From: Pelagibacteraceae bacterium AG-464-P07
GTDB taxonomy: Bacteria > Pseudomonadota > Alphaproteobacteria > Pelagibacterales > Pelagibacteraceae
Length of the DNA: 64,000 bases
Assembly (NCBI GenBank): GCA_003211695.1
Contig: QCSA01000002.1
Span: 62,001-126,000 of the forward strand
Direction of reading: 5' to 3'
The notes below the pieces were generated by a model. It was not told the DNA's origin and did not search any database. It saw only the letters and a list, made by a program, of their open reading frames with translations. Positions within the stretch are counted from its first letter, which is position 1. Each line of letters begins with the position of its first letter. The position numbers were made by a program, and so were the translations under genes. Below, in pieces: positions 4,439 through 62,854 of this stretch.

Positions 4439-5479
4439 ATGAAATTTAAAAAACTTGGAAATACTGATTTAGAGGTTAGCTTGATTTGTATCGGTACTAT
4501 GACATGGGGAAAACAAAATAATCAAACAGAAGCCTTTGAACAAATGGATTATGCCATAGGTCAAGGTATAAATTTTTTTGACACAGCTGAAATGTACGCT
4601 GTTCCATGTACCGAAGAAACTTTTGGAAAAACTGAAACGATTATTGGAAATTGGTTCAAAGAACGAAGTAACCGTAAAAAAGTGATTTTAGCAACCAAAG
4701 TTTCAGGACCAGGTCTTCCATGGATACGTGGAGGTGGCCTTCAATATACCAAAGAAAATATTTCAGCCGCTCTTGAAGGAAGTCTAAAGAGATTGCAAAC
4801 AGACTATATCGATCTTTACCAACTACATTGGCCTGAAAGAGATACCAATTATTTTGGAAAATTAGGTTACAAACATCAAGATAAAGAAAAAGAATGGAAC
4901 AGCATCAAATCTATTTTAAATGTATTAAAACAATTTGTCGATCAAGGTAAGGTTCGTTACATAGGCCTTTCCAACGAATCTGCATGGGGACTTTCCAAGT
5001 TTTTAGAACTATCTAAATTGCAGGATTTACCTAGAGTTATGTCAGTTCAAAATCCTTACAACTTGTTAAATAGAACCTATGAAGTTGGCCTTGCAGAAAT
5101 TTCTATTCGAGAACAGTCTGGGTTGTTGGCTTACTCTCCTTTAGCATCAGGAGTGTTAACTGGAAAATATAGAAATGACCAAAAACCAAAAGGTTCCCGA
5201 TTACAATTGTTTGGAGATTATTTTCCAAGATATTTTAATAATTTATCGCTATTAGCTGTGGAAGAATATTTCAAAGTTGCAAAAAAAAATAAAATTTCTC
5301 TCGCTCAATTATCCTTGGCATTTGTTAATAAACAACCCTTTGTGACAAGCAACATAATAGGAGCAACAACAATGAAACAACTTAAAGAAGATATAGAAAG
5401 CATTAATATCGAATTGAGCTCTGAAATTATTGATGAAATTAATTTAGTTCACAAAAACAACCCAAACCCAGCACCTTAA
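4439..5479 (+). CDS. aldo/keto reductase
   Basis: LGNTDLEVSLICIGTMTWG, DTAEMY, GLSNESAWG motifs. Confidence 0.9.
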   Translation: MKFKKLGNTDLEVSLICIGTMTWGKQNNQTEAFEQMDYAIGQGINFFDTAEMYAVPCTEETFGKTETIIGNWFKERSNRKKVILATKVSGPGLPWIRGGGLQYTKENISAALEGSLKRLQTDYIDLYQLHWPERDTNYFGKLGYKHQDKEKEWNSIKSILNVLKQFVDQGKVRYIGLSNESAWGLSKFLELSKLQDLPRVMSVQNPYNLLNRTYEVGLAEISIREQSGLLAYSPLASGVLTGKYRNDQKPKGSRLQLFGDYFPRYFNNLSLLAVEEYFKVAKKNKISLAQLSLAFVNKQPFVTSNIIGATTMKQLKEDIESINIELSSEIIDEINLVHKNNPNPAP

Positions 5480-52053: not shown

Positions 52054-52809
52054 ATGAATAACAAATTAAATAAGACAACTTCAGCAATAATCATAATTGG
52101 AAACGAAATATTATCTGGAAGAACCCAAGAAGTTAATCTTTCATATCTTTCAATCTGGCTTAACAAGTTGGGAGTAAGGGTAGAGGAAGTCAGAATTATT
52201 CCCGATATAGAAAATAAGATTGTTAATTGTGTTAATGAATTAAGGAGAAAATTTAATTATGTTTTTACAACTGGAGGAATTGGACCGACTCATGACGATA
52301 TAACAGCTAAGTCAATATCAAAGTCATTTAATTTAAATTACGAAATGCATCAGGAGGCTTTCAATATTTTAGAAAAATATTATAAACCTGGAGAATTTAA
52401 TGAAGGAAGACAGAGAATGGCCATGATGCCTTCAAAAGCAAATTTAATTTATAATCCCACAAGCGGAGCTCCCGGTTTTTCTGTTGAAAATGTTTTTTGT
52501 TTACCAGGAGTACCTTCAATTCTCCAATCAATGCTAGATGGTCTAAAAAATAAAATCTCTGGGGGAAAACCAATATTAAGCAAAACCATTAATTTAAGAA
52601 CCGTTGAAAGTGAAATTGCTAAACCACTAAAAGAAGTTCAAGAAAATAATATAGATGTTGAAATAGGTAGCTATCCCTTTTTTAAATCAGGTAAAGTTGG
52701 AGTCGCAATAGTTTTAAGGTCTGAAGATGAGTCTAAAATTAGCATTTGCAACAATCAGATTTTAAAAATTATTAATAGCAAAAAAATTAAGTTAATCGAT
52801 AAAAATTAA
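52054..52809 (+). CDS. molybdopterin-binding domain protein (CinA N-terminal-like)
   Basis: AIIIIGNEILSGRTQEVN; TGGIGPTHDDITA; LPGVPSI. Confidence 0.9.
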   Translation: MNNKLNKTTSAIIIIGNEILSGRTQEVNLSYLSIWLNKLGVRVEEVRIIPDIENKIVNCVNELRRKFNYVFTTGGIGPTHDDITAKSISKSFNLNYEMHQEAFNILEKYYKPGEFNEGRQRMAMMPSKANLIYNPTSGAPGFSVENVFCLPGVPSILQSMLDGLKNKISGGKPILSKTINLRTVESEIAKPLKEVQENNIDVEIGSYPFFKSGKVGVAIVLRSEDESKISICNNQILKIINSKKIKLIDKN

Positions 52810-52812
52810 TCA

Positions 52813-53220
52813 ATGTTATATTTTGCATACGGTAGTAATTTAAACCATGAACGAATGAAAAAAAGATGTAAGGATTCATATTTTATAAAAACTATAAGTT
52901 TGAAAGATTATTCACTTACATTTAGAAGTAAATATAGGACTGCAGATATAGAGAGAGAGAGAAATTCAAAAGTATGGGGTGCCCTGTATAGAATTTCAGA
53001 ATCCGACGAGAAGCAACTTGATTTTTATGAAGATTATCCTATCCTTTATAAAAAAATGTATTTTAATTATTTTAGTAAAAAAATAATGACATATATAATG
53101 CCAAAAAAAACTCCATTTAGATATCCAGCTACAAAATATCTTAATGTTATCAAACAAGGTTATCAAGATTGTAAACTTGATAAAAAATATCTAAATAAAG
53201 CATTAAAGTCTTTTTGTTGA
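52813..53220 (+). CDS. gamma-glutamylcyclotransferase-like protein
   Basis: LYFAYGSNLNHERMKKRC; VWGALYRISESDEKQLDFYE. Confidence 0.88.
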   Translation: MLYFAYGSNLNHERMKKRCKDSYFIKTISLKDYSLTFRSKYRTADIERERNSKVWGALYRISESDEKQLDFYEDYPILYKKMYFNYFSKKIMTYIMPKKTPFRYPATKYLNVIKQGYQDCKLDKKYLNKALKSFC

Positions 53221-53265
53221 AATTGTTAGATACACAAAAATTAGTAGACACTTGTTTGGATTTAA

Positions 53266-54459
53266 TCAAATAAAATTTTTTAAAAATATTTTATCTAATT
53301 GTGATAAAAAAATATCTTTAGAAAAATGTTTATCAAATGCAATCAATCCATTTTTTCTTATTTTATTCCATAAACTTTTACTATTATATAATCTCAGAAT
53401 ATGCTTAACAAATTGATCTTCATTTTTCGCAGTTAAACAATCATTTAAGTGCTTTAATCTCATACATTCAGCGGCAACTTCATTTATTACACTTGGGATA
53501 CCGTGTGATAGGTAATTACATACCTTACCATTAATGCCTTTACCAAAATTTAGTGGAGCGATTGCAACTCGACACTCATTTAACACATTATAAACATCTT
53601 TTACATAACCCACAACATGCACATTTTGAAATTCTAACAATTTAATAATTTCACTAGAAAACCCCGTACCTATTGCAAAGGTTTCTTTAGAAAACCCCGA
53701 ACCTACAATTTTTAGATTGATTTTCGAATTATAATTTAAAATTTTTGGAAAAATATTTTTAATAAAATATATCATCGCAATTTTGTTTGGAGGATGAAAC
53801 ATTGTTCCTATAAACACAATGTCTTTTCTACTTTCAAATTTTTTTTTAGTAACATTTTTTTTATGAGCAATAGTTAACTCATAAGAATTTATATTGTATT
53901 TTTTTAAAATTTTTTTTTCTACTGGACTTACAACGGTTGTTACATCAGAAAGTGAGCAAAACTTTAATTCTTCTTTTTTAATTTTATTTATTTTAAATTT
54001 TTTTTTAATTCTTTTAATATTAAAAATTGAAGAAAAAAATTTTTGTTTTAAAAATTTTCTTTTCCCCCAAACTGATTGACTATCAAGCCTTAAGAAATGC
54101 AAATCAACAGTGTGAAACCATAGTTTAGCATTTTGGCAATATTTCTTACAAATATTAAAATAGTTCGTTGCCACAGAATGTCTATTGATAATGACAAGAT
54201 CAAAAAGAGATCCATAATTTTTTAAAAAAATTTCTACCGAAATAATCTTTGGTCTGCACAAAACTTTCACGCCAAGTTTTAAAAGATTCTTAGTATATGG
54301 ATTTTTATTTATTTGATATGAAAAATTTTCAACAGTAGGTAAAAATTGAACGGCATAATTTTTATTTGTTAAATATATAATTTTATTCATTAAATCAATT
54401 GAACCTGCGTCTCTTGTTGGATCTGGTGTGACTTCGTCTAAAATTAAAATATTTTTCAT
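53266..54459 (-). CDS. glycosyltransferase (GT4/Glyco_trans_1 type)
   Basis: FIGTMFHPPNKIAMIYFIKNIFPKI; VGYVKDVYNVLNECRVAIAPLNFGKGINGKV. Confidence 0.85.
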   Translation of the reverse strand: MKNILILDEVTPDPTRDAGSIDLMNKIIYLTNKNYAVQFLPTVENFSYQINKNPYTKNLLKLGVKVLCRPKIISVEIFLKNYGSLFDLVIINRHSVATNYFNICKKYCQNAKLWFHTVDLHFLRLDSQSVWGKRKFLKQKFFSSIFNIKRIKKKFKINKIKKEELKFCSLSDVTTVVSPVEKKILKKYNINSYELTIAHKKNVTKKKFESRKDIVFIGTMFHPPNKIAMIYFIKNIFPKILNYNSKINLKIVGSGFSKETFAIGTGFSSEIIKLLEFQNVHVVGYVKDVYNVLNECRVAIAPLNFGKGINGKVCNYLSHGIPSVINEVAAECMRLKHLNDCLTAKNEDQFVKHILRLYNSKSLWNKIRKNGLIAFDKHFSKDIFLSQLDKIFLKNFI

Positions 54460-54632
54460 GATTTATATAGTTATTTTATAATTAATCTATATAAATTGTT
54501 TTTGGTGTTGTGTCTAAAAATAAAATTGATCTAGATATTAGCAGTGGTAAACCAAAAATTTGGTTAATAACTCAATCTAAATTTTCGGAAAATAAAGAGA
54601 TAAATTTATGCTATACTATTTGTTTCTAATCA

Positions 54633-54818
54633 ATGAAAACAATTCTACAGTATAATACCTGGGGTGAATTGAATGATTATCTGTCTGAACTGACAAACTC
54701 AGGAAAACAAAAGCAAGCCGGGGATATTTTTGAAAATCTATGTAAATATTATTTATTAACTGCGCCACATTACAGAAGTAAACCAAAAAATGTTTGGTTA
54801 TTAAAAGAGATAAATTAA
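54633..54818 (+). pseudogene. truncated N-terminal fragment of restriction-enzyme/helicase-like protein (type ISP/III-like)
   Basis: MKTILQYNTWGELNDYLSELTNSGKQKQAGDIFENLCKYYLLTAPHYRSKPKNVWLLKEIN resembles the nuclease-like N-terminus of large restriction-helicase proteins, then stops; recognition from memory only. Confidence 0.5.
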
Positions 54819-54883
54819 AAAAATTTTACTTATTAGACTTGTTCAATTATAAATATTGCGTAAATACAAGCAAACAAAGGAAT

Positions 54884-54969
54884 GCCCTCGTGGTGAAATT
54901 GGTAGACACAAAGGACTTAAAATCCTTGCCCATTTGGGAGTGCCGGTTCGAGTCCGGCCGAGGGCACCA
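54884..54969 (+). tRNA. tRNA-Leu(TAA), CCA encoded
   Basis: Class II tRNA: GCCCTCG/CGAGGGC acceptor, CTTAAAA loop, long variable arm, ACCA end. Confidence 0.96.
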
Positions 54970-55022
54970 AAAATATGAAAAATGATTCTGTAGATGCAAA
55001 GGACACCAACAATAGCCTTTAA

Positions 55023-57305
55023 TTAATTTAATTTATTCAAAGATAAATATTTATTATATAATTTTGCAATATTTGGAACAGTGATATTACAAGTTCTTAG
55101 CTTGTCTTCATCTTTCATAATACTATCAGTTAGACCATCAATTTCAATTTTACCATCTTTCATAATGATAAGTCTTTCTGCATAATTCCATGCTAGGTGA
55201 ATATCATGAGTTATTAATATAATTGTTTTACCTTGTTTTTTAAGTTCTTCTATAATTTTCATTAATTTAGTTATTTCATTTTCATCCAAAGTATTTGTTG
55301 GTTCATCAAAAATAATTACATTAGGGTCAATTGCAAGTATAGATGCAATTGTTAATTTTCTTAAATTTTCAGGAGATAAATTAATAGGATTTTGATTTAA
55401 TTCTAAACCAAATCTTTCACTTTCAAATAAAGTTATTTTATCAATTTGATCTTTTTTAAATTTAAGTTGCTTGGGACCAAATGCTAATTCTTCTCTCACT
55501 GTTGTTGAAAGAATTTGATATGATGGTTCTTGAAATATATATCCTATTTTTATGTTTTTATCTTTAATTACTTTACCTTTTGTAGGTTTTAACGCATAGC
55601 TAAGTACTAAGCTTAATGTCGACTTTCCCGAACCGTTTGCTCCTAGTATTGCAGTTAATTCATTTTTTTTAAAATTTAAATTTATATTATTTAAAACATT
55701 ATTTTTTTTGTCATATGAAAAACAAAGGTTTTCTGTTTGAATAATGTTTTGATTAAGATTTTCACTCTTTTCTCTTTTAGGCAAAATATAATCTTTAATA
55801 TTACTGTTTTTAGATATTAGCTCTTTTAAATTATTTAAATAATATTCAATATTATATAAATTTTTATTAGATGAAAATTTGAAACCTAATTCTACTAATA
55901 ACGGAACTCTTCTTCCTGATTCCTTTAAAATCTTTATAAAATCTCTATCATTTTTATCTATTAATTTTATCGTTTTATCTTTTACTAAATATATTTTATC
56001 AAATTCAAGAGGATTTAAATTTTGTTCCGATAGCAATGTTGATTGATCCGAGCTAATTTGATTTATGGATTCAATTACCTCTTCTCTTCCTATAGGATCC
56101 AATTGTCCAGTAACTTCATCAAAAATAAGTAATTCTGGCTCGGCAATTAAAGCAGATGCAATCGCAACTCTTTGTTGTTGGCCACCTGACAAAGATAAAG
56201 TTTTTCTCTGTAAAAAAGTTTCATCTAAACCCACTAATTTTAGAATCTTTAATTTTTGTTCGTTCCATTTTAATTTATCAATTTTTGACCTTAAAAGACT
56301 TAATTCTAATTCATCATTTATTCTTATTCCAACAAGACCATGTGCGGCACTTGGAAAAACTATTCTTACTATTTGAGATAATTCTCCAAGAGTTAAATCT
56401 TCTGTATTATTTCCAAATATATTAATTGTACCGGTATGTTGACCAATAGTTCTTGAAAATAATCCTCGAGATAAAATTAAAGTACTACTTTTTCCTGATC
56501 CATTTTCTCCAATTAACATTATTTTTTCACCTTTATTAAACTGTAAATTTATATTTTTAAGAACAAAATCATTATCAGATACATCTTTACTTAAATCATA
56601 TGTTGTTGAGGCTTTTAATATTTCAAATTTATTACTATTTTTTGTATTGATAAAAGATTGAGATGTTGAAGTTCCTCCAAGATTATCTACAGCTAAACTT
56701 TGTTGGTTAATATGACCAATTAATCTAAATATCATAGGAACAGGTATTAATCTTAAACCTTGGATTTTATCTAAAACTGAACCTTCCCATTTTATGCCTC
56801 TGATAGACATTGATTGCATTAATGTAGTGAATTCCATATTAAGTAAATCTATATATCTTAGAACAATCATTAAATATATTTGACCTTTGTGAGGAAGTTT
56901 TAATGATTTTGAAGTATCAAATAAATCTTCCAAAGAAGTGACAGAAATATAGGCAATTGCGAAAAGTATCATAAAAAATAATCTTAATCCTAATATGGCA
57001 CCCGTCTCTAGTCCTCCTTCTGTAAGAGTTAATGGACCAACAACAAAAATAGTTTTTCCTGAATGGTGAATAAAAATATTTCCTATAAAGCTTAATGTTC
57101 CTGCTACAGTGCAAGTTATCAAACCTAATTTATGATATGTTCTTCCTGATAAATATATAATTGTTATAATGGTGCCGGATACAGCAACTCCTAACCAATT
57201 ATAAGTAAAAAAAGTACTTGCTAAACTTAATACAACAAAGAAAATAAATCTTGGAAGGGGGGCTAATACCCCCATCCCAAATCTATTTTTTTGATCTAAA
57301 CCCAT
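55023..57305 (-). CDS. fused ECF transporter energising module: EcfT-like membrane domain followed by two EcfA-like ATPase domains
   Basis: N-terminal multi-TM domain, then NBD1 ([24 protein letters not shown]) and NBD2 (GANGSGKSTL, VIIFDE, ITHD). Confidence 0.9.
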   Translation of the reverse strand: MGLDQKNRFGMGVLAPLPRFIFFVVLSLASTFFTYNWLGVAVSGTIITIIYLSGRTYHKLGLITCTVAGTLSFIGNIFIHHSGKTIFVVGPLTLTEGGLETGAILGLRLFFMILFAIAYISVTSLEDLFDTSKSLKLPHKGQIYLMIVLRYIDLLNMEFTTLMQSMSIRGIKWEGSVLDKIQGLRLIPVPMIFRLIGHINQQSLAVDNLGGTSTSQSFINTKNSNKFEILKASTTYDLSKDVSDNDFVLKNINLQFNKGEKIMLIGENGSGKSSTLILSRGLFSRTIGQHTGTINIFGNNTEDLTLGELSQIVRIVFPSAAHGLVGIRINDELELSLLRSKIDKLKWNEQKLKILKLVGLDETFLQRKTLSLSGGQQQRVAIASALIAEPELLIFDEVTGQLDPIGREEVIESINQISSDQSTLLSEQNLNPLEFDKIYLVKDKTIKLIDKNDRDFIKILKESGRRVPLLVELGFKFSSNKNLYNIEYYLNNLKELISKNSNIKDYILPKREKSENLNQNIIQTENLCFSYDKKNNVLNNINLNFKKNELTAILGANGSGKSTLSLVLSYALKPTKGKVIKDKNIKIGYIFQEPSYQILSTTVREELAFGPKQLKFKKDQIDKITLFESERFGLELNQNPINLSPENLRKLTIASILAIDPNVIIFDEPTNTLDENEITKLMKIIEELKKQGKTIILITHDIHLAWNYAERLIIMKDGKIEIDGLTDSIMKDEDKLRTCNITVPNIAKLYNKYLSLNKLN

Positions 57306-57326
57306 TCATTATAGTTTTTATAAAAC

Positions 57327-58070
57327 TTAATAGGTTGATAGACCTCTTTTTTTCATTTCGCCTGTTAAAGAGAATAAGACACCAAGTCCAAGTATACTTG
57401 CCACTATGTCTCCCATAGCCCAACCAGGGAAAACTATTGTCCAAGCTGATGCACCCATTTCACCAATGCTGGCCCAAACATAAGCTCCCATTGCTGCACT
57501 TACTACACTGGCTATTACCACTGCTATTACTGCCTTGAATACGTTTTCATTAAGTTTAAATGCTGAACTAGTTGTTTGTGCTAAAATATACCAACCAACT
57601 ACACATATTAAACCAGCAATTACTCTTCCCCAAATTCCTAAAGATGGAGCAAGGTAATAACCTGCTACCATTGCAACAATTATAGTTACCGCAACTAAAA
57701 CAGTGCTTTTAACTAAATCTGCACTTTTAGCTTGGCCACTAGACAAGTCTATTTTCATCCATCTAAACAAATAATAAAGTAATAAAGTATTTGCGAAAAA
57801 AGCAGGAATTGGATTTTGACCAATATTGATAGCGATTGGATTACCTGCCAAAGCGCCACCTATAAAAGTTCCTATAGCGGCTGCTGCCCATCCGTATGGT
57901 CCAAACCAAATAGCTCCTGTTACCATAAATATACATGGCAACCAAAAGAAGCTTGCCCCAGCTGCTCCTGGAATTGATAAAAGCATTGAGCATAGATAAG
58001 CAGAAGCAACTATAGCGGCTGCCCAAATAGCTGATGCTACAAAAATTCCTGTTCCAGATTTTGTACTCAT
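57327..58070 (-). CDS. putative ECF transporter S component (multi-TM protein)
   Basis: ~6-7 hydrophobic segments, GWAAAAIGTFIGGALAGNP; directly upstream of the fused T-A-A gene. Confidence 0.65.
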   Translation of the reverse strand: MSTKSGTGIFVASAIWAAAIVASAYLCSMLLSIPGAAGASFFWLPCIFMVTGAIWFGPYGWAAAAIGTFIGGALAGNPIAINIGQNPIPAFFANTLLLYYLFRWMKIDLSSGQAKSADLVKSTVLVAVTIIVAMVAGYYLAPSLGIWGRVIAGLICVVGWYILAQTTSSAFKLNENVFKAVIAVVIASVVSAAMGAYVWASIGEMGASAWTIVFPGWAMGDIVASILGLGVLFSLTGEMKKRGLSTY

Positions 58071-58166
58071 ATTTTTACCTCCCCAAGTGATTCTTTAAAG
58101 GTGAACACTATGCACATTATTAAAAGTATATAAAGAAAGTAATTTGATTCTTAAATTTATTTAAAT

Positions 58167-58910
58167 TTATTTTTTATCTAAGATTTTTTTTAATTCTCGT
58201 AATGGTGGAGTTGCTTCTAACATACCTTTTTCTAGTAAATCCCAGTAAATTCCAGAAGGTCGACTTTTATTCCTGTTTGTGGATAACTTTTGTTTATTGG
58301 TAATTATCCAATCAACTATTATATCAGTTTCGCTTGGTTCAAGTTCAAAATTAACTACTTGTACTTCATGGACCACTGCAACGATGGGTGTATTCTCATC
58401 AACAATTTTTAAATCAGCAAACATTCCCCATTCAAGATCAAAAAAACCATGTCCCTTTCCGAATCTAACTCCATTCTTTGATACCGCAGAAGCACCAGTT
58501 AACATTAAATCTATTTTTCCTAAATTTTTAATTTCCTTTAGGGAGATACTTTTACCAAAATGCTCTAAACCATCCAAGGTACTTGCAAAAACTTCATTTC
58601 CTTTATTTACCATATTTTTTGTGATTAAAATTAATCCCCTATAGATTCCATATGTTGAAACAATTATATCTTTTTCATCTTTAATTGCTTGTTCCCTTAT
58701 TGTTGTTAGGCAATTATCAGGGGTAATGAATAATAACTTTGACTCCTTGTATTCTTCACTTTTAATAATTTGATCATGAGCTTTTATACTATCTTTAAAA
58801 TCAGGAATATATTCTTCAAAATTCAAATGAAACCTTGAGTCTGGTAAAGCAACATTTTTTAGCCTTTGCCACACTTTTAAACGTACTTGCTGTTTGTCTT
58901 TTTTATCCAT
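58167..58910 (-). CDS. 5-formyltetrahydrofolate cyclo-ligase-like paralog (COG0212 family)
   Basis: VRLKVWQRL N-terminus; NGVRFGKGHGFFDLEWGM matches the 5-FCL G(K)GxGYYD-type motif. Confidence 0.78.
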   Translation of the reverse strand: MDKKDKQQVRLKVWQRLKNVALPDSRFHLNFEEYIPDFKDSIKAHDQIIKSEEYKESKLLFITPDNCLTTIREQAIKDEKDIIVSTYGIYRGLILITKNMVNKGNEVFASTLDGLEHFGKSISLKEIKNLGKIDLMLTGASAVSKNGVRFGKGHGFFDLEWGMFADLKIVDENTPIVAVVHEVQVVNFELEPSETDIIVDWIITNKQKLSTNRNKSRPSGIYWDLLEKGMLEATPPLRELKKILDKK

Positions 58911-58988
58911 AAATTTGTATATTATAAAAATATTAAATATAACTCTATAATATTTTTTGTTACTAATTATAACCGAAAGGAATTAAAC

Positions 58989-59609
58989 ATGAAAAATCTC
59001 ATTTATTTTTTAACACTTTTTTTATTTTTTTCTCCAGTTATTGCTAAAGAATTTCGAATTGATTTTAATGAAGAAGGAATGAAGCTCTTCAAGAAAAAAG
59101 GCTTTGGTAAAAAAACTATTTATACCAATGCCAAAGATGATAATGGCTATTATGTAAAAGCTGTGTCGGAATCAGGCGCAACAGGAATTGGTATCGAAAT
59201 TGACAACAAAGAGCTTTTAAAAGAAATGCCTTTTTTAAATGTTACATTTAAAATTGAAAAAGATTTTACAAATATTGATCAAACGACTAAAGATGGTCAC
59301 GATTGGGCCGCAAGAGTGATGATTGGACATGGTAAAAAAATTGGTTCTAAATTACTGAGTTTGTCCCATTCATCATTTTTGGACGAAGGGTTTCTTCAAC
59401 AAAGTCCATGGACAAAAGGCAGTCGCGATTATGTTATCTCGAACGATAAGAGCGGCGAATGGCATACACGTAAAGTTAATGTAAAAGAATTGCTTGAAAA
59501 AACCCATAATATTTCTTTTACTAATTTTCTTGCTATATTTTCAGATTCTAACAACTCAAAACAAAAAATTGTTGCATATTACCGAGATATATATTTTAGC
59601 GATAACTAA
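58989..59609 (+). CDS. DUF3047-like secreted protein
   Basis: Signal peptide MKNLIYFLTLFLFFSPVIAKEF; DWAARVMI; YYRDIYFSD; ATG 58989 with upstream AAAGGA. Confidence 0.65.
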   Translation: MKNLIYFLTLFLFFSPVIAKEFRIDFNEEGMKLFKKKGFGKKTIYTNAKDDNGYYVKAVSESGATGIGIEIDNKELLKEMPFLNVTFKIEKDFTNIDQTTKDGHDWAARVMIGHGKKIGSKLLSLSHSSFLDEGFLQQSPWTKGSRDYVISNDKSGEWHTRKVNVKELLEKTHNISFTNFLAIFSDSNNSKQKIVAYYRDIYFSDN

Positions 59610-59611
59610 AG

Positions 59612-59632
59612 CGAGTCCAGCCGAGAGCACCA
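59612..59632 (+). repeat. degenerate copy of the 3' end of tRNA-Leu (att-like direct repeat of 54949-54969)
   Basis: CGAGTCCaGCCGAGaGCACCA vs CGAGTCCgGCCGAGgGCACCA, 19/21 identical, both differences G>A. Confidence 0.9.
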
Positions 59633-59639
59633 TTATGAT

Positions 59640-60416
59640 ATGAAAAATATAAAACTTCATTTTGTTTTTGATGCAAATGGTAAATTAAGTAAAAAAAGAT
59701 TAAAATTATTAAAAAAATTCAAAAATTACTCACCTCAAAAAGCAGATTTGATTACTGTCCTTGGTGGAGATGGATTTATGCTTCAAACATTAAAAAAATT
59801 AGGAAGGTTTAATAAACCGTTTTATGGAATGAATATGGGAACCTATGGCTTTTTAATGAACAAATTTAAAACCAAAAAATTTGCTCAAAATATTGCCAAA
59901 TCTAAACTAGTAACTATTTCTGCTTTACAAATGATTGCAAAAACTAAAAATAATATTATGAAAAAAGCTATAGCAATAAACGAAATTTCTATGCTCAGAC
60001 AGAGTAAACAAACTGCATCACTGCAAATAAAAAATGGAAAAAGACTAATTATGAAAAAACTAACCTCTGATGGAGTACTAGTATCCACTCCTGCTGGGAG
60101 CACGGGTTATAATCTTTCTGTTCATGGCCCCATCTTGTCGTTAAACTCAAAAAAATTAGCAATTACACCTATTAGTCCATTTCGACCAAGAAGATGGAAA
60201 GGAAGCGTAGTATCAGATAGGTCAGTCATAAAGATAAATAATTTGAATATTAACAAAAGACCAGTCAGTGTTGTGGCTGACAACGTTGAATTTAGAAATA
60301 TAAAAAAAGTAAAAATCTATATTAATCGTAAAATCAAATTTAACTTACTTTATGATCCGAAAAATAGCCTTAATAAGAAAATTAAAATAGAACAAGTAAG
60401 AAAAGAAATAAAGTAG
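59640..60416 (+). CDS. nadK: NAD kinase
   Basis: LITVLGGDGFMLQTLK; GMNMGTYGFLMN; DGVLVSTPAGSTGYNLSVHGPIL. Confidence 0.93.
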   Translation: MKNIKLHFVFDANGKLSKKRLKLLKKFKNYSPQKADLITVLGGDGFMLQTLKKLGRFNKPFYGMNMGTYGFLMNKFKTKKFAQNIAKSKLVTISALQMIAKTKNNIMKKAIAINEISMLRQSKQTASLQIKNGKRLIMKKLTSDGVLVSTPAGSTGYNLSVHGPILSLNSKKLAITPISPFRPRRWKGSVVSDRSVIKINNLNINKRPVSVVADNVEFRNIKKVKIYINRKIKFNLLYDPKNSLNKKIKIEQVRKEIK

Positions 60417-60427
60417 AAGTATAATCT

Positions 60428-62854
60428 ATGGAAAAAATAAAATCTCACGCAAAAATTGCAATAATAGGTGGTGGGATTTTAGGCGTTAGCTTATTATATC
60501 ATCTTACCAAAGAAGGCTGGAAAGACTTGGTATTAATTGAAAAAGGAGAACTTACTTCTGGTTCTACTTGGCATGCCGCAGGCCAATGTCCACACATGGT
60601 AGGAAGTTATAATTTGGCTAAAGTTCATTTACATTCTACGAATCTTTACAAAAGTCTAGAAAAAGAAACTGGTCAGGCCACTGGATGGCACGGATGCGGT
60701 AGTTTAAGATTGGCTTACAAACAAGAAGATCTTGATTGGTTTTTTTATGTAAAAGGAATTTTAGATAATGTGGGATCACCTGCGGAGATAATTTCTACTA
60801 ATGAAATTTCAAAAATACATCCTTTTATAAAATTAGATGGAATTATTGGAGGCTTCCATACACCAGAAGACGGGCATACAGATCCAACAAGTACGACAAA
60901 TGCAATGGCCAAAGGAGCTAGAAATGGTGGAGCAAAAATATATCGAAACAATCGTGTCATTGACATTAAAGCACGCCCATCGGGAGAATGGGAAATTATA
61001 ACTGAGAGTGGCAATATTGTTTGCGAACATGTTGTTAATGCTGCGGGTAGCTTTTGTTCAGAAGTTAGCCAAATGGTAGGAATAAAAAATATACCAAGTA
61101 TCAATATGATTCATCATTATCTGGTTACTGAAGAGCATCCTGAAATTAAAAAATTAACAAAAGAACTACCTGTTGTAAGAGACCCAATTTCTTCCTGTTA
61201 TCTCCGCCAAGAAGGAAAAGGTTTATTAATTGGAATTTACGAAAAAAACTCAAAATGCTGGGCTTTAGATGGAATGGATTGGAAGTTTGATATGGAATTA
61301 TTGGAACCAGAACTTGATAGACTTGAAGAACATTTAAATAAGGGGATGGATAGAATTCCTCAGTTTAAAGATGTAGGGATTAAAAAAATAATTTGTGGTC
61401 CAATTACCCATACCCCGGATGATAATTTTTTTGCTGGACCAGCTCCTGGATTAAAAAATTTCTGGATGTTCTGTGCTGCAAGTATAGGCATAGCCCAAGG
61501 TGGAGGTGCTGGGAAATATCTTGCCCAATGGATAACTTACGGTGATGCAGATATAAATATGCTGGAGTTTGAACCAAGAAGATACCTAAGCTGGATAAAT
61601 AAAGATTATGCTATTGAGAAATGTAAGGATCAATATAGAAGAATGTATGTAACCGCCTTACCAAATGAAAGTATTGAGGTTGGAAGACCGATAAAAAAAA
61701 CACCTATTTATAAAAAATTGAAAGATTTGGGAGCTATTTACCTAGATTCATATGGTTGGGAAAAACCCTGCTGGTTCGCAAAACCTGGAATGAGAGAAGA
61801 GTACAGTTTTAAACGGTCTAATGCTTTTACTTATGTTCAAAAGGAATGTGAAAATGTTCAAAATAATGTTGGTGTTTTAGATTTAAGTACTTTTGCAAAA
61901 TATGAAATTTCTGGAAAAAATAGCGAATCTTTTTTAGATCGTTTATGTGCAAACAGGATTCCAAAAAAAGAAGGAAGCATTATTCTTACCCATATGCTTA
62001 ATGAAAAAGGACGCATTCAAACGGAATTAACAATAACGCGTTTTCCAAATAACGTTTTTTATGTTCTTTCTTCTACGGCTTCTGAAATTAGAGATTTTGA
62101 TTGGTTTAATCTTCATCTTAAAAAAGGAGAGTATGTAAGTATTAAAAATGTTACCCAGGATTATGGAGTGCTTGTTCTAGTAGGACCAAATTCGAGAAAA
62201 GTATTGTCTCAATTAACTTCTCAAAATTTACATAATAATGATTTTCCTTGGCTTAAAGGTAAAGAAATTTTAATTAACAAAATTCCAGTGAGAGCACTTA
62301 GAGTAAATTATGTTGGCGAATTAGGTTGGGAACTCCATCATTCTATGGATCAAATGGAAACATTATATGATTCAATCTATGAAGTAGGCAAGAAGGAAAA
62401 TATAATTAATTTTGGAACTTATGCAGTAAATTCTTTAAGAATGGAAAAAGCATACAGGGGTTGGGGCAGTGAACTTACTGGTGAAATTAGTTTAGTTGAA
62501 GCTGGCATGAGTCGTTTTTTTAATTTGAAGAAAAAAAATAATTTTATTGGGGCCAAAGCCCTTCAAAATAAATCTCAATCCGGAGTTGATATTAAAATTG
62601 TTTACTTGGAAGTTGATGTGGACAATGCTGATGCGAGAGGTAATGAGCCTGTTTACCATAACAATAAAGTGGTGGGAGTGGTTACTTCAGGAGGGTATGG
62701 ATTCAGGACCAAAAAAAGTCTAGCATTCGCTTACGTAAAATCTGATTTAGCTACTGGTGTAAACTTAGAAATTGAAATTCAAGGTCAAAGAAGAAAAACA
62801 AAAATACTCGATAAAGTTGTCTATGATCCGGACAATCAAAAATTAAGGGCCTAA
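60428..62854 (+). CDS. FAD-dependent dimethylglycine/sarcosine dehydrogenase-like protein (DAO + GcvT domains)
   Basis: IAIIGGGILGVSLLYHLTKEGW; GSTWHAAGQ; C-terminal GcvT-like domain (GVLDLSTFAKYEI, YVGELGWELH). Confidence 0.9.
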   Translation: MEKIKSHAKIAIIGGGILGVSLLYHLTKEGWKDLVLIEKGELTSGSTWHAAGQCPHMVGSYNLAKVHLHSTNLYKSLEKETGQATGWHGCGSLRLAYKQEDLDWFFYVKGILDNVGSPAEIISTNEISKIHPFIKLDGIIGGFHTPEDGHTDPTSTTNAMAKGARNGGAKIYRNNRVIDIKARPSGEWEIITESGNIVCEHVVNAAGSFCSEVSQMVGIKNIPSINMIHHYLVTEEHPEIKKLTKELPVVRDPISSCYLRQEGKGLLIGIYEKNSKCWALDGMDWKFDMELLEPELDRLEEHLNKGMDRIPQFKDVGIKKIICGPITHTPDDNFFAGPAPGLKNFWMFCAASIGIAQGGGAGKYLAQWITYGDADINMLEFEPRRYLSWINKDYAIEKCKDQYRRMYVTALPNESIEVGRPIKKTPIYKKLKDLGAIYLDSYGWEKPCWFAKPGMREEYSFKRSNAFTYVQKECENVQNNVGVLDLSTFAKYEISGKNSESFLDRLCANRIPKKEGSIILTHMLNEKGRIQTELTITRFPNNVFYVLSSTASEIRDFDWFNLHLKKGEYVSIKNVTQDYGVLVLVGPNSRKVLSQLTSQNLHNNDFPWLKGKEILINKIPVRALRVNYVGELGWELHHSMDQMETLYDSIYEVGKKENIINFGTYAVNSLRMEKAYRGWGSELTGEISLVEAGMSRFFNLKKKNNFIGAKALQNKSQSGVDIKIVYLEVDVDNADARGNEPVYHNNKVVGVVTSGGYGFRTKKSLAFAYVKSDLATGVNLEIEIQGQRRKTKILDKVVYDPDNQKLRA

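What the first reader, a model, noticed from the sequence alone, without database searches (positions are those of the whole stretch)
54949..59648. Island scar: tRNA-Leu 3' end duplicated 4.66 kb downstream, apparently separating nadK from the tRNA
The tRNA-Leu 3' end CGAGTCCGGCCGAGGGCACCA (54949-54969) recurs as CGAGTCCAGCCGAGAGCACCA (59612-59632), with two mismatches. Similarity resumes a few bases later with ATATGAAAAAT at 54973-54983 and 59638-59648; the second copy contains the start codon of nadK. An intact tRNA, a cargo segment and a degenerate 3'-end repeat is the classic arrangement left by a tRNA-targeting integrase. The cargo holds the fused ECF transporter operon, a 5-FCL paralog and a DUF3047-like gene, with no integrase left. 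The simplest inference is that nadK once followed tRNA-Leu directly. The repeat now forms the nadK 5' leader.
Basis: partly seen in the sequence, partly recalled or inferred. Interest (0 to 1): 0.76.

Follow-up and report, generated by a model that had tools for sequence, protein, structure and literature searches.

The report
Phage-scarred tRNA-Leu gene island
In a SAR11-type ocean bacterium, a leucine tRNA gene that phages use as a docking site has been broken and rebuilt from both ends, leaving tRNA fragments as scars around a swappable set of genes that includes a nutrient-uptake cassette; it is a new example of a known kind of hotspot, with an unusually readable history.

Summary
The tRNA-Leu(UAA) 3' end (54949-54969) recurs at 59612-59632 with 19 of 21 bases identical, just before nadK, and nowhere else in the window. 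The key prediction also holds: at 77 other nadK places in Pelagibacteraceae the tRNA 3' end lies within 60 bp of nadK, including the closest nadK relative (82% protein identity). The full-length ECF gene occurs in 2 of 197 family genomes.

The single-island reading is too simple. (1) A second fossil exists: the tRNA 5' end, decayed, at 53208-53239, exactly where close relatives carry the tRNA. The ancestral tRNA was split; the intact copy lies inside the variable region. (2) DUF3047 sits between tRNA-Leu and nadK without the ECF genes in four relatives and is discordant with its neighbours. (3) The ECF/5-FCL cassette is a separate module: at another locus in SCGC AAA288-N07, behind a T7-like prophage attR in tRNA-Leu(UAA), and beside tRNA-Leu(GAG) with its own 3' scar.

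Best reading: a tRNA-Leu attachment hotspot filled stepwise by phage-associated integration, holding integrase-less, CIME-like cargo. Mobilisation is inferred, not shown. Side finding: many phages with this site carry a tRNA-Leu(UAA) interrupted by a group I intron.

The parts
52813..53220 (+). GGACT-family (gamma-glutamylcyclotransferase-like) gene; left anchor of the empty site. Its stop codon lies inside the tRNA 5' end in G004 and G126:C104
   Evidence: PF06094; junction sequences; distances
53208..53239 (+). Decayed 5' end of the ancestral tRNA-Leu(UAA); left fossil
   Evidence: 21 of 30 bases, next best place in 64 kb has 18; same place as the tRNA in relatives, same TGA stop; shuffle p about 0.003
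53266..54459 (-). Glycosyltransferase (group 1) gene, upstream cargo
   Evidence: PF13692; absent between GGACT gene and tRNA in G004 and G126:C104
54633..54818 (+). Small ORF of 61 codons, no family above cut-off; may not be a gene
54884..54969 (+). Intact tRNA-Leu(UAA), the attachment gene, rebuilt copy
55023..57305 (-). Fused ECF transporter protein: T component (CbiQ) plus two ATPase domains
   Evidence: PF02361 and two PF00005 stretches; TIGR04520 just below cut-off
57327..58070 (-). Membrane protein, probable S component of the ECF transporter (inferred from position; no family match)
   Evidence: 95-96% identical in G001 and L123
58167..58910 (-). 5-formyltetrahydrofolate cyclo-ligase paralog
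   Evidence: PF01812; far below the NCBIfam cut-off for the enzyme proper
58989..59609 (+). DUF3047 gene; independent insert between tRNA-Leu and nadK
   Evidence: PF11249; present without the ECF genes in G004, G042, G019, G006; discordant identity
59612..59632 (+). 3'-end scar of tRNA-Leu, starting inside the T-loop; right fossil, now in the nadK leader
   Evidence: 19 of 21 bases
59640..60416 (+). nadK (NAD kinase); right anchor of the empty site
   Evidence: PF20143, PF01513

Best explanation
The segment 53208-59632 is a stepwise-built island at a phage attachment hotspot. Shown: the ancestral order was GGACT gene, tRNA-Leu(UAA), nadK, with almost no spacing. Shown: temperate T7-like phages have integrated in this tRNA, and other phages carry its 5' half or a whole copy next to or without an integrase. 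Inferred: elements that supply a new promoter and tRNA 5' half leave the old 5' half upstream as a relic, and elements that supply the 3' part leave the old 3' end downstream. The window bears one decayed fossil of each kind, with a rebuilt intact tRNA between them. Inferred: the cargo pieces (glycosyltransferase, ECF/5-FCL cassette, DUF3047) arrived in separate events and have no integrase of their own, like cis-mobilizable (CIME-type) modules that can move only when a phage or other element integrates beside them in the same tRNA. The prophage-attR-ECF junction in L092 is the arrangement expected of such accretion.
For: Empty site in many relatives and in the closest nadK relative. 3' scar and 5' relic. 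Prophage junctions at this tRNA: L081 next to nadK and L092 next to the ECF gene. Phage 5'-half attP candidates beside integrases, also in the cultured pelagiphage HTVC105P. Fresh 5' halves in eight host genomes, all ended in the anticodon loop, and fresh 56-bp 3' copies in G156 and G082. DUF3047 85-88% identical in G004, G006, G042 where nadK is 70-75%. The cassette sits beside tRNA-Leu(GAG) with a T-loop-truncated 3' scar in L123, and G003 keeps tRNA, cassette ends and scar.
Against: No integrase in the segment. 17 of 20 other cargo-bearing loci show no convincing 3' copy. The cassette also occurs away from any tRNA in G001. No scar separates the cassette from DUF3047 in the window. DUF3047 and the glycosyltransferase were not found in viral contigs. 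The 5' relic is short and decayed. No circular form or transfer was seen.
Confidence: 0.62

Rival explanations
1. Phages made the old tRNA scars, but today's cargo is exchanged by homologous recombination between conserved anchors (GGACT gene, tRNA-Leu, nadK), as in replacement-type flexible islands.
For: Cargo is variable on both sides of the tRNA; most loci lack 3' relics; the cassette exists at a locus without tRNA.
Against: The L092 prophage joint and fresh tRNA halves show ongoing integration; the cassette occupies two different tRNA-Leu genes whose flanks are not homologous.
Confidence: 0.25
2. One reading: one tRNA-targeting island inserted at 54949-59632 and lost its integrase.
For: Intact tRNA, 21-bp 3' repeat, variable cargo, empty site in relatives.
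Against: 5' relic upstream; DUF3047 present without the ECF genes in four relatives; the cassette is an independent module elsewhere.
Confidence: 0.08
3. One element that carried its own complete tRNA-Leu split the ancestral tRNA in a single event, as described for the prophage uv-Fonsiphage-EPL (PMC6811365), and all of 53240-59611 came with it.
For: It explains both relics and the internal intact tRNA with one event.
Against: DUF3047 beside nadK in G004, G042, G019 and G006 would have to be coincidence or a later loss of the rest; no phage gene remains in the segment.
Confidence: 0.1
4. The 21-bp copy is chance similarity or a conserved tRNA-like leader of nadK.
For: It lies in the nadK leader and is short.
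Against: No match in 100 shuffles; not conserved before nadK in relatives with cargo; longer fresh copies at the same place in G156.
Confidence: 0.02

Closest known systems
Dehalococcoides ssrA genomic islands (PMC3146451)
   Same: Streamlined genome; tandem modules behind one RNA gene; 20-bp 3'-end direct repeats broken in the T-loop; modules without integration genes discussed as CIMEs
   Different: There the gene is ssrA, the integrase a serine recombinase, and repeats lie only on the 3' side; here the tRNA gene has relics on both sides and phages are the likely agents
CIMEs of streptococci (PMC7563491)
   Same: Cargo flanked by att sequences, no recombination genes, found next to elements that share the att
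   Different: CIMEs derive from conjugative elements and move by conjugation; here the neighbour is a T7-like prophage and movement is not shown
T7-like pelagiphages and uv-Fonsiphage-EPL in SAR11 tRNA-Leu (PMC6811365, PMC3861242)
   Same: Integration in a SAR11 tRNA-Leu gene; phage carries its own tRNA-Leu or a 46-bp part of it
   Different: Published site in PMC6811365 is tRNA-Leu(TAG); the segment in the window holds no phage genes
T7-like cyanophage attP sites (PMC8776855)
   Same: attP matches the first half of tRNA-Leu just downstream of the integrase gene, as in HTVC105P and L116-L119, L122
   Different: Cyanobacterial hosts; integration reported as transient

Membership tests
tRNA-associated genomic island | Insertion at a tRNA gene, with an empty site in relatives | tested here: met
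tRNA-associated genomic island | Direct repeat of the tRNA 3' end at the far boundary | tested here: met
   59612-59632, 19 of 21; decayed and truncated at the T-loop
tRNA-associated genomic island | Integrase gene next to the tRNA | tested here: not met
   none in the segment; the genome's only PF00589 hit is on contig 10
tRNA-associated genomic island | Sporadic distribution of the cargo | tested here: met
   full-length ECF protein in 2 of 197 genomes
CIME (cis-mobilizable element) | Flanked by att sites, without recombination or transfer genes | tested here: inconclusive
   intact tRNA and decayed 3' scar flank the cargo, no such genes; whether the scar still works as att is unknown, and no scar bounds the ECF cassette alone
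CIME (cis-mobilizable element) | Found in tandem with an integrated element sharing the att site | tested here: met
   for the ECF cassette in L092: integrase, tRNA-Leu 3' core, ECF gene
CIME (cis-mobilizable element) | Transfer in cis with that element | not testable with these tools
   needs an experiment or reads across circular junctions
Prophage | Phage structural or replication genes in the segment | tested here: not met
   Pfam scan of the segment's main ORFs

The most novel reading that the evidence does not exclude
A small integrase-less nutrient-transport cassette travels between different tRNA-Leu genes (UAA and GAG) of SAR11 bacteria by accretion with temperate T7-like pelagiphages, perhaps through the T-loop sequence GTTCGAGTC that both genes share. 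Phages would then be the vehicle of a modular metabolic island system in one of the most streamlined bacterial groups.
Probability: 0.3. Interest if true: 0.72.

Novelty: new member of a known kind. Interest (0 to 1): 0.5.

Why it matters
SAR11 genomes are streamlined and have few recognised mobile elements, yet they differ in nutrient uptake. This locus ties such variation to a defined phage docking gene and keeps a readable record of successive events. The 5' and 3' tRNA relics are markers for past integrations in genomes that no longer hold an integrase, so the tRNA-Leu-nadK junction can be surveyed across genomes and metagenomes to measure phage-linked gene turnover.

Tried and rejected
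Structure prediction of the candidate S component gave pLDDT 45 and was not used. Five viral-contig scans for tRNA-Leu(GAG) attP got no answer from the machine, so phage use of that tRNA is untested. A relaxed Rfam scan found no riboswitch above cut-off in 52700-60500; a thiamin role for the cassette rests only on the 5-FCL/COG0212 link recalled from memory and a co-expression mention in PMC5874261, so I do not claim it. DUF3047 and the glycosyltransferase were sought in viral contigs without success. My first view that viral contigs with a tRNA 3' end are bare attP fragments was wrong: 20 of 32 hold an intron-split tRNA by ARAGORN's intron mode; my own regular expression for that form matched nothing. 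The loss of the cassette in G003 looks like deletion between 10-bp repeats, not site-specific excision. Zhao et al. 2018 on pelagiphage integration is not held, so overlap with it is unchecked.
Full report
CHECK OF THE OBSERVATION. The window is contig 2 (62001-126000) of a 1.14-Mb, 46-contig assembly, 83% complete with 0.08% contamination. A same-genus relative, G001, corresponds to SCGC AAA288-N07, and the matches are Pelagibacteraceae, so this is a SAR11 genome. tRNA-Leu(TAA) at 54884-54969 is real. Its last 21 bases recur at 59612-59632 with two mismatches; with up to three mismatches allowed there is no third copy and no match in shuffles. The ATATGAAAAAT similarity is at the stated places.

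EMPTY SITE. In 197 sampled family genomes, nadK was found in 155 and the tRNA 3' end in 153. Joining the two lists, 79 nadK places have a tRNA 3' end within 60 bp upstream. Two of these (the window and G156) have a second copy further up, which leaves 77 with tRNA-Leu and nadK side by side. Another 34 have a gap of 75 bp to 4.9 kb; the smallest gaps may only reflect where the protein alignment starts. ARAGORN confirms full tRNA-Leu genes at many of these places. The closest nadK, 82% identical in protein, lies on a 2.8-kb contig of a mildly contaminated assembly (G126:C104) with the order GGACT gene, tRNA-Leu, nadK and nothing between.

THE LEFT FOSSIL. In G126:C104 and in same-genus G004 the GGACT gene runs into the tRNA and takes its stop codon from it (AAG CCC TCG TGG TGA). 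In the window the same gene ends AAG TCT TTT TGT TGA and continues GAAATTGTTAGATACACAAAA, a decayed form of GAAATTGGTAGACACAAAGGA. It matches 21 of the first 30 tRNA bases; the next best place in 64 kb matches 18. In a shuffle test it scores at the floor. The intact tRNA is 1.66 kb further on, behind a glycosyltransferase gene and a small ORF. I infer that the ancestral tRNA stood at about 53208. Its two ends are now relics 6.4 kb apart with a rebuilt tRNA between them.

THE CARGO IS IN LAYERS. DUF3047 lies between tRNA-Leu and nadK, without the ECF genes, in G004, G042, G019 and G006; in G006 a cytidylyltransferase-like gene accompanies it. Its DNA is 85-88% identical to the window's copy in G004, G006 and G042 (79% in G019), while nadK in the same pairs is 70-75% and GGACT, where measured, 68-76%. 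This discordance fits horizontal arrival; stronger selection on DUF3047 is an alternative. The ECF fusion is full-length in only two of 197 genomes. In G001 the cassette (window 55025-58994, 92.7%) lies between a glutamine-amidotransferase-like and an EVE-like gene (both recognised by eye), with no tRNA near; for scale, the acs gene of the two genomes is 86% identical. On contig L123 of another Pelagibacteraceae assembly the cassette (86%) follows a tRNA-Leu(GAG) 3' half, and after an adenosine-deaminase-like gene comes a short tRNA-Leu(GAG) 3'-end scar that starts at the T-loop. G003, 98.4% identical to L123 over 1.3 kb there, has the intact tRNA-Leu(GAG), both ends of the cassette, the same scar and an internal deletion between 10-bp repeats. 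The L123 and G003 scars each differ from the tRNA 3' end by one base, at different positions.

PHAGES AT THE SITE. Of 32 viral contigs holding the tRNA-Leu 3' end, L081 carries phage genes (head-tail adaptor, exonuclease), tRNA-Leu and then the start of nadK: a prophage junction at this site. L092 carries a T7-type terminase, an antirestriction protein, a tyrosine integrase, the tRNA-Leu 3' core and then the ECF gene at 95.7%. Its integrase is 54% identical to that of a deep-Mediterranean T7-like phage. Eight further viral contigs carry the tRNA 5' half without the 3' half; in five of them an integrase-like frame ends shortly before it. The cultured pelagiphage HTVC105P has an unannotated exact 38-bp copy of the 5' half 84 bp after its integrase gene. 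In host genomes ten 5'-half copies in eight genomes lie upstream of the intact tRNA, all ending in the anticodon loop, and G156 and G082 have fresh 56-bp 3' copies downstream. These are the products expected of two kinds of integration, one supplying the 5' part and one the 3' part of the gene. The window holds a decayed example of each.

HOW IT MOST LIKELY WORKS. Shown: the ancestral order, the two relics, phage integration at this tRNA, and the separate distribution of the cargo pieces. Inferred: that phage-type integration made the relics, and that cargo without an integrase was brought, or can be moved, by accretion with phages in the same tRNA. The main rival, homologous replacement between conserved anchors, is not excluded: 17 of 20 other cargo-bearing loci show no convincing 3' copy, and the cassette also occurs away from tRNAs. 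That both 3' scars (window, and L123/G003) start at the T-loop fits an integrase exchanging strands there, but later trimming is possible.

COMPARISON WITH KNOWN SYSTEMS. Dehalococcoides ssrA islands follow the same logic: tandem modules, 20-bp 3'-end repeats broken in the T-loop, and modules without integration genes discussed as CIMEs (PMC3146451). CIMEs are defined in PMC7563491. Integration of T7-like phages into SAR11 tRNA-Leu genes is published (PMC6811365, PMC3861242), and cyanophage attP sites in the tRNA-Leu 5' half have been tested (PMC8776855). Zhao et al. 2018 on pelagiphage integration was not held. I file this as a new member of a known kind; the integrase test fails for the segment as a complete integrative island, and the CIME label is a working analogy.

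SIDE FINDING. ARAGORN's intron mode finds tRNA-Leu(UAA) genes with an intron of about 191-196 bases in 20 of the 32 viral contigs, and Rfam's group I intron model reaches its cut-off in six of 13 contigs tested. A 2014 review states that phage group I introns seen until then were all in protein genes (PMC3984707). I searched only briefly for later reports, so novelty is not claimed. Similar sequence exists in Agrobacterium phage Atu_ph07 and, in part, within the capsid gene of pelagiphage HTVC120P.

Noticed in passing
Viral contigs L064, L066-L070, L073, L076-L078, L081, L082, L084-L088, L091, L093, L094: Phage-borne tRNA-Leu(UAA) genes are interrupted in the anticodon loop by an intron of about 191-196 bases; six of 13 contigs tested reach the Rfam group I intron cut-off. 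A 2014 review knew phage group I introns only in protein genes.
   Followed up: partly
L190 2501-2538 (Pelagibacter phage HTVC105P, record 4685-4722): Unannotated exact 38-bp copy of the tRNA-Leu 5' half 84 bp after the integrase gene: a candidate attP in a cultured phage.
   Followed up: partly
L104, L106, L107, L110, L169, L173, L177, L179: Ten tRNA-Leu 5'-half copies upstream of the intact tRNA in eight host genomes, all cut in the anticodon loop; several are followed by spaced AGTC-type repeats that resemble integrase arm sites.
   Followed up: partly
L123 5333-5384, minus strand: Beyond the tRNA-Leu(GAG) 3' half lies what looks like the 3' half of another tRNA (GTGCAAGTCCTTTCTCGCCCACCA), at the contig end.
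   Followed up: no
L186 6843-6852 compared with L123: G003 has lost nearly the whole ECF cassette by a deletion between 10-bp direct repeats (TATTTGTTGT), leaving both ends.
   Followed up: partly
window 57327-58070: Probable S component without any Pfam or NCBIfam match above cut-off, 95-96% conserved in protein while the cassette's DNA is 86-93% identical; substrate unknown.
   Followed up: partly
window 52813-53220 and relatives: In the empty site the GGACT gene overlaps the tRNA-Leu 5' end and uses a TGA inside the tRNA as its stop codon.
   Followed up: partly
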